Source: Natrononativus amylolyticus
Lineage (GTDB): Archaea; Halobacteriota; Halobacteria; Halobacteriales; Natrialbaceae
NCBI RefSeq assembly: GCF_024362525.1
Contig: NZ_CP101459.1
Location: forward strand, 248,001-312,000
Length of the DNA stretch: 64,000 nt
Reading direction: 5' to 3'
The notes under the pieces: model-generated
Seen by the model: only the letters and a program-made list of their open reading frames with translations
Database searches by the model: none
What the model was told of the DNA's origin: nothing
Translations under genes and position numbers: made by a program
Shown: piece by piece, positions 44,969-47,321 of the stretch
Layout: each line of letters begins with the position of its first letter
Position numbering within the stretch: the first letter of the stretch is position 1

Positions 44969-45163
44969 TTACGATCCGTCGATCAACCGGACGTCACCGC
45001 CTGCGACCGCGAGGAGGCGCTCCTCGAGCGCCCGGTCGGGGCCGTGCTCGTCGATGTCGGGGGTTCGCTCGAGGTGATCCTCGACCGCCCGTTCGATCCC
45101 TTCCTCGAGCGGCGTCGACGACCAGCCGAGGCCCGCGAGTTTCTCCGTCGACACGACGTAGGG
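44969..45163 (-). pseudogene. 3' fragment of a disrupted NAD-dependent epimerase
   Basis: About 64 codons remain, beginning PYVVSTEKLAGLGW and ending at the TAA. This is the C-terminal part of a haloarchaeal NAD-dependent epimerase/dehydratase. The 5' part lies at about 46745-47321 on the other side of the tnpB element. The two parts together are 60-75 codons shorter than typical family members, so some of the gene was lost as well. Confidence 0.75.
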
Positions 45164-45300
45164 ATGACATCCTCCCCGGCGTAAACGCCGGGGTTTCCTC
45201 GCGCGGGGTATCGCTTACCGACCCACTGAGGCAACTTGCGGGTTCGTATGCTCCTCGTTGGGACGGTGAGAGCGTGGTGACTCCGACCAAGTATGGTCGT
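45163..45300 (-). ncRNA. Predicted omega RNA (reRNA) scaffold at tnpB 3' end
   Basis: In this family the guide RNA is made from the 3' end of tnpB and the element's right end, and its guide is the flanking host DNA. Here that would cover the end of tnpB and the hairpin 45174-45193, with the guide reading into the epimerase fragment from about 45162 downwards. The limits are by analogy only. Confidence 0.4.
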
Positions 45301-46489
45301 CCTTGAGGCATACAGGCCGTGCCATCGGCCGTGTTACCGTCGTCTGCCGCCTCAGGAACGTCTCGCTTGCGGTGAGGTCTGCGTGGCTCTCGAAGCCGCA
45401 CGGACACGTGAGCGTGTCTCGGTGGCGTGTCGTCCGGTCGGTCGAACCACAGTTCGGACACTCTTGGCTTGTCCACGCTTCCGAGCGAATCTCTACGGAT
45501 ATACCGTACTCCTCGGCGGTACACGCGAGGCGCTTGATGAACGCCCGGAACGCCCAGAAGTTGTGCGTTTTCTCGTTGGCCCGAACCGACCAATGCGTAT
45601 CGAGTACGTCCGTTAACGCCCCGACGTACACCGTGGAGACGCCTTCGGCGTGCAACCGTTCAATGAGGTCGCGTGCGAGCGCGTCTTGGGCGTGGTCGCG
45701 ACGTCTTGTCCGGCTTCGGTATAGCGAGCGTATCCGATGACTGCTGTACCGTCCGTCGTCCAAGAGCGACTGCAACCGGGCGATTTCTCGCGTCGTCTCG
45801 CGGAACCGCTCGAACAGGTCGCGCCCTTCGTACAGCAGTTGCGTGCCGGTCGTGGTCGTACAGGCGACGAGGTTGTTCGCACCAATATCCAAAGCGGCCG
45901 TTTCGTCGGCCAGTGGGTGTGCCAGTCGAGGATTGTCGATAGTGACTGGCTGAAAGGCTCTGAATGTCTGTGCTTGTTCGTCCCAGAACAACTCTAACCG
46001 GCCCTGCTTGTCGTACTGCTTCCAGTTGGGGTCGCCCCGGACTTCGAGTCGAAGCCTCTCGCGGTGTCCAAGGCCGTACTCGTCTTTCAGGTCTTGGCCG
46101 ACGAGGATTTCGAGTCGGGAGTATTCGCCCCATTCGACCGAGTACGACGTGTTTCGGATGTACGTTCGGAGTTCGCGGTCGTCCTCGGCGTTGCCCCAGA
46201 AGCCGGGCTTGCCGTTGGCTTCACCCTTCTTTTGGAGTGCGAAGAACGACCTCCACACTTCGCGGTTCTTCCGTTCGATTTGCTGAACGGTTGACGCGCC
46301 GAGGACACCGCCGTAGCGTCCGCGATACTCGCTGATGTCCCACACGTCCGCGTCGGGGTCTGCGTAGTTCTCGCGGCGCTCGTAATTTATCTCGTTCCAG
46401 AGAGCGGCAGAAGCGTCCAACAGGCGTCGAAGCAACTCCTCGTCCGCGTGGGACTGAGAAACCACGTCGAACGTGTTGGTCCGCTTCAT
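45215..46489 (-). CDS. tnpB: TnpB-family RNA-guided nuclease homologue
   Basis: A 424-residue protein from ATG 46489. The C-terminal half is RuvC-like: the first acidic residue is Asp201 ([12 protein letters not shown]), the zinc ribbon has cysteines at about 344, 347, 362 and 364 (ECPNCG, CPCG), and the last acidic residue is Asp371 (SHADLTAS). The RuvC-II glutamate, normally in V-E-D-L, is absent: the strand reads [12 protein letters not shown], with Gly290 at that place. Glu306 (NEKTHNFW) or the Glu of SEAWTS might substitute. It is otherwise full length and undamaged. TnpB proteins cut DNA at the donor site, aiding retention of the element. Confidence 0.9.
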
Positions 46490-46518: not shown

Positions 46519-46540
46519 AGTCTATGGTTATCCATAGACT
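46519..46540. promoter_or_regulatory. Perfect palindrome between tnpB and the small gene
   Basis: AGTCTATGG and CCATAGACT are perfect nine-base arms around TTAT. The repeat fills the space between the divergent starts at 46489 and 46546, so a protein bound here would control both. It is AT-rich enough to include a promoter element. Confidence 0.7.
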
Positions 46541-46545
46541 GAGTT

Positions 46546-46677
46546 GTGACGAACATTCACATCGAAGTGCCGGACGAGGAACAGTACGAGCGGCTGAAAG
46601 ACGTGAAGAACAAGTACGGGCTAACGTGGCGTGGGATGCTTGTCCACGCGGCCGACGACTTGGATACCCCGGACTGA
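46546..46677 (+). CDS. 43-residue gene divergent from tnpB, possible DNA-binding regulator
   Basis: Starting at GTG 46546, the small protein begins MTNIHIEVPDEEQYERLKDVK and ends HAADDLDTPD. The pattern of a short strand, then KDVKNKYGLTWRGMLVHAA helices, resembles ribbon-helix-helix or antitoxin-type proteins. It lies inside the element, is transcribed away from tnpB and is separated from it by a perfect palindrome. I infer a repressor of tnpB and of itself. It is too short for family assignment by eye. Confidence 0.7.
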   Translation: MTNIHIEVPDEEQYERLKDVKNKYGLTWRGMLVHAADDLDTPD

Positions 46678-46744
46678 GCGGCGTCGGCGGTTATTCGGCA
46701 GTTGTCGGATTCACGCCCGCCGTAAACGGCGGGACTCTCTCCTT

Positions 46745-47321
46745 GAATCAGGTAGTCGCCCCCCGGGACGACGATCCGGTCGTGGGTCCGCACGCGGTCG
46801 ATCCAGTAGCCGAGCCTGCCGGTGGGGTCGTACGGCCCGTAGATTGCCGTCGGCCGGACGATTCTGGCGTCGACGTCGGCCTCGAGGAGCAGCCGGTCGC
46901 ACTCGGCCTTTCGCGGCCCGTAGCTCTCCATCGTGTCGTCGACGGCCTGCTCGGGCGAGCAGGGCTCGAGGGGCGTCCGCCCCTCACGGATCGGGACGGT
47001 GGAGCCGAGCCGGTAGGCGCTGGTACTCGAGACGAACACGTAGGTGTCGATGTCGCTGAAGACGTCGAGAGCCGTTCGAACGTCCTCGGGGTAGAACCCG
47101 GCGAAGTCGATCACGACGTCGGGATCGACCGCCTCAGTGGCCGCCCGAAGGGCCGCCTCGTCCCGGCGATCACCCTCGACGTGACCGACGTCGTCTTCGT
47201 CGAACGGGATCGGCGTGTTGCCGCGCGTAAAGAGCGTCACGTCGTCGCCGCGGTCGCGGAACTCCTCGACCGTGAACCGACCCATGAACCGTGCGCCGCC
47301 GATCGTCAAGACCCGTGTCAT
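46745..47321 (-). pseudogene. 5' fragment of a disrupted NAD-dependent epimerase/dehydratase
   Basis: About 192 codons from ATG 47321. The Rossmann motif GGARFMGRFTVEEF and the catalytic Y-x3-K (YGPRKAECDRLL) are intact, and VRPTAIYGPYDPTGR is conserved. Coding similarity stops at VVPGGDYL, where the tnpB element begins. The frame reads on into the element until a stop at 46557, so any product would have a foreign tail and no substrate-binding domain. The enzyme is surely inactive as an epimerase. Confidence 0.8.

What the first reader, a model, noticed from the sequence alone, without database searches (positions are those of the whole stretch)
45215..46489. TnpB lacks the canonical RuvC-II glutamate
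Asp201 and Asp371 of the RuvC site and the zinc ribbon are intact, but the strand that normally ends in V-E-D-L reads V-G-A-L. Either the glutamate has moved (Glu306 or the Glu of SEAWTS) as in TnpB groups with rearranged catalytic residues, or the nuclease is dead and acts as an RNA-guided binder.
Basis: partly seen in the sequence, partly recalled or inferred. Interest (0 to 1): 0.72.

Follow-up and report, generated by a model that had tools for sequence, protein, structure and literature searches.

The report
TnpB nuclease with its glutamate moved
This jumping-gene protein from a salt-loving archaeon has not lost a catalytic acid; the acid sits 47 residues further along, as in a published group of related RNA-guided DNA-cutting enzymes, so it is probably an ordinary working nuclease of a known kind.

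Summary
The ORF at 45215-46489 (minus strand) is a 424-aa TnpB with Gly290 where the RuvC-II glutamate normally sits. It is not a dead nuclease, and Glu306 is not the replacement. The moved residue is Glu337 of SEAWTS, seven positions before the first zinc cysteine (E-x6-CxxC). This is the published 'Ealt' arrangement of Fanzors and some TnpBs (Yoon et al. 2023, PMC10711439).

Position 290 is Gly and position 337 is Glu in 77/77 haloarchaeal homologues; Glu306 is Glu in only 38/77. In a separate set of 90 diverse TnpBs, the glutamate sits at one place or the other: 85 canonical only, 5 alternative only, none with both or neither. D201, E337 and D371 are the only acids shared by all Ealt members examined.

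A predicted structure (pLDDT 79) puts Glu337 in the loop between the fifth RuvC strand and the zinc domain, where Fanzor structures place theirs. The gene is under purifying selection, has intact ends and a conserved end RNA, and relatives moved recently. Cleavage is inferred, not shown.

Additions: the family rides IS200/IS605 elements (some with a Y1 transposase), has a CxC second zinc knuckle, and often carries a conserved divergent 43-45-aa ORF.

The parts
45215..46489 (-). tnpB gene, 424 aa, Ealt type: RuvC triad D201-E337-D371, G290 at the canonical glutamate position
45479..45481 (-). codon of Glu337 (SEAWTS), the relocated RuvC-II glutamate, E-x6-C344xxC347
   Evidence: computed from ATG at 46489; conservation 77/77, Ealt-specific
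45620..45622 (-). codon of Gly290, the vacated canonical glutamate position
   Evidence: computed from ATG at 46489; 77/77 Gly
45164..45293 (-). right end of the element, including the conserved 3' part of the predicted omega/reRNA (overlaps the tnpB 3' end)
   Evidence: 51-sequence alignment and consensus fold; 9 of 18 pairs with compensatory changes
45174..45193 (-). terminal RE hairpin CCCCGGCG-TTTA-CGCCGGGG, followed by AGGATGTCAT at the element's end
   Evidence: sequence; three pairs with 18-21 double changes among 51 sequences
46716..46733 (-). left-end hairpin CCCGCCGTTTACGGCGGG
   Evidence: sequence; conserved at the left ends of relatives
46752..46755 (-). CTAC at the outer left end: candidate target/transposon-adjacent motif (TTAC in the sister subfamily)
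   Evidence: ends defined by identical copies at different sites; BLAST boundary at 46755
46546..46677 (+). divergent 43-aa ORF (GTG start), conserved companion of the element
   Evidence: 48 loci with tblastn hits; pN/pS median 0.07; no Pfam/NCBIfam match
46519..46540 (.). 9-bp perfect inverted repeat AGTCTATGG-TTAT-CCATAGACT between the two divergent starts, operator-like
   Evidence: as long in 1 of 1000 shuffles; arms retained in several relatives
44972..45163 (-). 3' remnant of the interrupted NAD-dependent epimerase gene; its first bases are the guide position of the predicted omega RNA
46756..47321 (-). 5' part of the same epimerase gene

Best explanation
[quoted passage not shown] Its RuvC site uses D201, E337 and D371. 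The metal-binding glutamate has moved from the end of the fourth RuvC strand (now Gly290) to the loop after the fifth strand (Glu337), just before the zinc domain. Inferred working: the 3' end of the tnpB transcript forms the omega RNA. The DNA flanking the right end supplies the guide. The complex finds sites bearing the left-end motif (CTAC here) and cuts them with two metal ions, which helps keep the element in the cell. Shown here: residue pattern, conservation, element ends, covarying end RNA, purifying selection, recent mobility of relatives. Inferred: cleavage, guide use, TAM identity.
For: Conservation 77/77 at both switch positions. Mutual exclusion in 90 unrelated TnpBs (85/5/0/0; Fisher p 2e-8). 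D201, E337 and D371 are the only acids shared by all 23 Ealt sequences examined, and residue 337 is never E in 91 canonical ones. E-x6-CxxC is the published Ealt definition. Predicted fold: E337 directly after strand 331-335, D371 at the start of helix 370-382; Fanzor structures place the E on the loop between the fifth strand and the TNB domain. Whole-length fold match to Cas12f (Z 26.1), ISFba1 TnpB (21.9), ISDra2 TnpB (20.7) and mimivirus Fanzor2 (20.7). dN/dS 0.12-0.19. Covarying RE hairpin. 100%-identical copies at different sites in two other genomes.
Against: No cleavage assay of any member of this archaeal group was found in the held papers. The tools give no coordinates, so no residue distances could be measured. 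Purifying selection and mobility also fit an RNA-guided binder with metal-dependent DNA holding. Two other acids (E327 77/77, E333 76/77) are equally conserved inside the haloarchaeal family and are excluded only by the wider comparison. Most of the wider Ealt viral sequences were fetched with a pattern containing the E; L312, L126 and the three archaeal-virus copies were not.
Confidence: 0.9

Rival explanations
1. [quoted passage not shown]
For: Canonical glutamate absent. Cas12m2 shows that an altered RuvC triad can bind without cutting (PMC10442227).
Against: Cas12m2 has lost the first Asp (His-Asp-Asp); here both Asps and a glutamate are kept in 76/77 relatives. Family elements have intact ends and moved recently in relatives. 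No fixed neighbouring target gene: flanks differ from copy to copy.
Confidence: 0.06
2. The replacement acid is Glu306 (or Glu327/Glu333), not Glu337.
For: E327 and E333 are almost invariant within the haloarchaeal family.
Against: E306 is Glu in 38/77 only; E327 and E333 are not shared by Ealt TnpBs outside the family (0.42 and 0.08 D/E) while E337 is 12/12. E306 lies in a low-confidence stretch, 296-306.
Confidence: 0.02
3. A decaying single copy with a chance E-to-G substitution.
For: Solo tnpB in a broken host gene; no own tnpA.
Against: Gly is fixed in 77/77 relatives; open frame; dN/dS 0.12-0.19.
Confidence: 0.01

Closest known systems
Ealt TnpBs with D-Phi-G motif (Yoon et al. 2023, NAR, PMC10711439)
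   Same: RuvC-II glutamate six residues upstream of the zinc CxxC; D-I-G at RuvC-I (Phi = I); non-acid at the canonical place.
   Different: Second zinc knuckle is CxC, so the published search pattern matches only 1 of 77 family members, while a CxC version matches 74.
Fanzor nucleases and cyanobacterial pro-Fanzors
   Same: Same glutamate relocation; fold matches mimivirus Fanzor2 9b0l with Z 20.7.
   Different: DIG not DPG at RuvC-I; archaeal; rides IS200/IS605-type elements whose relatives have an IS200/IS605 TnpA, not IS607.
ISHhu1 (Halobacterium hubeiense, IS200/IS605) TnpB
   Same: 69% identical TnpB with G290/E337; annotated tnpA of the IS200/IS605 family immediately upstream.
   Different: ISHhu1 has tnpA and TTAC...TCAA-type ends; the window copy is solo, with CTAC...TCAT ends and a divergent small ORF.
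ISDra2 TnpB (canonical)
   Same: Whole-length fold, zinc domain, right-end RNA (Z 20.7).
   Different: Canonical glutamate on the fourth strand.

Membership tests
TnpB (guided_TnpB, NF040570) | Profile score over the curated cut-off | tested here: met
   131.3 bits against cut-off 100
TnpB (guided_TnpB, NF040570) | Whole-length TnpB/Cas12f fold (WED, REC, RuvC, TNB) | tested here: met
   Model pLDDT 79; residues 1-386 aligned to Cas12f and TnpB chains, Z 20-26
TnpB (guided_TnpB, NF040570) | RNA-guided DNA cleavage | not testable with these tools
   needs an assay
Ealt TnpB | Glutamate six residues before the zinc CxxC, none at the canonical position | tested here: met
   E337-AWTSQE-C344; G290
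Ealt TnpB | CxxC second knuckle, as written in the published search pattern | tested here: not met
   CxC at 362/364; pattern matches 1 of 77. This is a search device of one paper, not a property that defines the group or its function, so I do not hold it against membership
Ealt TnpB | Groups with other Ealt sequences in a tree | tested here: inconclusive
   Quick tree needs two changes, but one Ealt clade is not rejected and scores higher (p-AU 0.62)
Fanzor / pro-Fanzor | D-P-G at RuvC-I together with Ealt | tested here: not met
   D201-I-G
TldR (nuclease-dead TnpB repressor) | Loss of RuvC catalytic residues | tested here: not met
   D201, E337 and D371 kept. The definition rests on my own knowledge of the family; the original paper was not read
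IS200/IS605 element (IS1341-like, solo tnpB) | Sharp ends with subterminal hairpins and a constant left-end motif; tnpB without tnpA | tested here: met
   Ends defined by identical copies at different sites; hairpins; the genome's only Y1 TnpA is elsewhere on the same contig
IS200/IS605 element (IS1341-like, solo tnpB) | Insertion 3' of the motif without target duplication, shown by an empty site | tested here: inconclusive
   No empty site recovered; about 82 codons of the host gene are missing at the window copy

The most novel reading that the evidence does not exclude
The archaeal IS200/IS605 lineage (haloarchaea, perhaps with the Sulfolobales and hyperthermophile virus copies) moved its glutamate independently of the lineage behind Fanzors, so that the same active-site rearrangement arose twice. 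The quick tree shows separate groups (archaeal virus copies were not in it), but a single clade is not rejected.
Probability: 0.2. Interest if true: 0.5.

Novelty: new member of a known kind. Interest (0 to 1): 0.35.

Why it matters
It closes the question that the missing glutamate raised: annotators should not label this large family (strong match in 121 of 194 genomes sampled from the window's class) as dead. It also shows that the relocated-glutamate active site is common on archaeal IS200/IS605 elements and not tied to IS607, and that a published search pattern misses this family because of its CxC zinc knuckle. Such TnpBs could help test whether moving the glutamate lowers collateral single-strand cutting, as Yoon et al. 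suggested for Fanzors.

Tried and rejected
First AlphaFold job with only close relatives gave pLDDT 46 and was discarded. Fold models carry no coordinates here, so side-chain distances could not be measured. Rfam found nothing in the window at gathering scores. A viral scan with the close family gave one relative, and one with L126 none. Yoon's pattern was tested and fails on the CxC knuckle. The AU test did not settle one or two origins; a second run without the long-branched L312 did not finish. Not held: Altae-Tran et al. 2023 PNAS and one further Fanzor paper. Glu306 and random decay were rejected on conservation. The window element's ancestral empty site could not be shown: about 82 codons of the host gene are missing between its two parts.

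Full report
What is there. The ORF at 45215-46489 on the minus strand encodes a 424-aa TnpB. It passes Pfam OrfB_IS605 and Cas12f1-like_TNB and the NCBIfam guided_TnpB cut-off. The zinc site is C344xxC347...C362xC364; the second knuckle is CxC, and all four cysteines are invariant across 113 diverse sequences.

Which glutamate. In 77 full-length members of the family (window included), position 290 is Gly in 77, position 337 is Glu in 77, D371 is Asp in 77, D201 is Asp in 76 (one Gly), and E306 is Glu in only 38. In 90 further diverse TnpBs from viral contigs, 85 have E only at the canonical position, 5 only at the alternative one, none has both and none has neither (Fisher p 2e-8; four of the five were fetched with a pattern containing the E, L312 was not). 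When archaeal virus copies, L126, Halobacterium NRC-1 and ISHhu1 are added, the only acids shared by all 23 Ealt sequences are D201, E337 and D371; residue 337 is never E in 91 canonical sequences (72 have Pro). Canonical TnpBs of other haloarchaea show the mirror image, FEDL...DPxxTSxxC.

Structure. AlphaFold2 with a 113-sequence alignment gave pLDDT 79.4, pTM 0.71. D201 lies in strand 196-202, G290 ends strand 284-290, E337 lies in the loop just after strand 331-335 and before the zinc domain, and D371 lies at the start of helix 370-382. [quoted passage not shown] VIA-align matches cover residues 1-386: AsCas12f Z 26.1, ISFba1 TnpB 21.9, ISDra2 TnpB 20.7, mimivirus Fanzor2 20.7. Distances between side chains could not be measured.

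Known or not. Yoon et al. (PMC10711439) define Ecan (about 50 residues before the zinc motif) and Ealt (six residues before it), and report a D-Phi-G/Ealt clade beside the DPG/Ealt clade that includes Fanzors. The window protein is D-Phi-G/Ealt. Their search pattern matches only 1 of 77 family members because of the CxC knuckle; a CxC version matches 74. So this is a new member of a known kind.

Element. Copies that are 100% identical at different sites in two other genomes fix the ends: CTAC...GGATGTCAT in the window's subfamily; near-identical pairs fix TTAC...TCAA in the sister subfamily. The window copy runs from about 46755 to 45164. Its right end carries a hairpin with compensatory changes in about 20 of 51 sequences at each of three pairs, as expected of an omega RNA. 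A sister-subfamily member, ISHhu1, has an IS200/IS605 tnpA directly upstream of tnpB, and the Ealt copies in SMV1 and ISDka2 also sit beside an OrfA gene. The window copy has no tnpA; the genome has one Y1 TnpA elsewhere. dN/dS against seven relatives is 0.12-0.19. Strong family matches (E <= 1e-100) occur in 121 of 194 genomes sampled from the window's class.

Most likely working. RNA-guided double-strand cleavage by a two-metal RuvC site D201-E337-D371, guided by right-end RNA and serving maintenance of the element. Shown: pattern, conservation, fold prediction, ends, RNA covariation, selection, recent mobility of relatives. Inferred: cleavage, guide use, TAM = CTAC. A dead binder is unlikely: Cas12m2, the example of binding without cutting, has replaced its first Asp, while this family keeps a complete triad.

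Tree. A quick tree of the RuvC region, with the trait columns removed, puts the haloarchaeal Ealt group and the viral-contig Ealt groups apart (two changes), but holding them together gives a better likelihood and is not rejected (p-AU 0.62). One origin is therefore the simpler reading.

Extra finding. A divergent 43-45-aa ORF (46546-46677, plus strand) was found in 48 fetched loci, including duplicates of the same place, with median pN/pS of 0.07 over 155 pairs. It has no Pfam or NCBIfam match; an ORF at the same place is annotated as a hypothetical protein in Natronorubrum daqingense. Between it and tnpB lies a 9-bp perfect palindrome (46519-46540), seen in shorter or changed form in several relatives. 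By eye the peptide resembles a short ribbon-helix-helix protein; a self-repressor of the element's promoter is a guess.

Noticed in passing
46546-46677 (+): Divergent 43-aa ORF next to tnpB, conserved in 48 fetched loci under strong purifying selection, no Pfam/NCBIfam match; looks like a short ribbon-helix-helix protein by eye.
   Followed up: partly
46519-46540: Perfect 9-bp inverted repeat AGTCTATGG-TTAT-CCATAGACT between the divergent starts of tnpB and the small ORF; related palindromes in several relatives. Operator-like.
   Followed up: partly
44972-45163 and 46756-47321: The element splits an NAD-dependent epimerase gene, and about 82 codons (about 246 bp) of that gene are missing between the two parts compared with intact homologues.
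   Followed up: partly
G000:C2 (L001-L008, L089-L099): All ten TNB-domain matches and the only Y1 TnpA of this 4-Mb genome lie on one 768-kb contig (C2), which may be a secondary replicon.
   Followed up: no
L411, L412, L413: TnpBs of Sulfolobus/Acidianus viruses (SMV1, ATV2) and ISDka2 in a hyperthermophilic archaeal virus also have the moved glutamate; two of them sit beside an OrfA/TnpA gene.
   Followed up: partly
L126 (G038): A second, distant haloarchaeal TnpB lineage with the moved glutamate (VGDLSDI...DEENTSKTC).
   Followed up: partly
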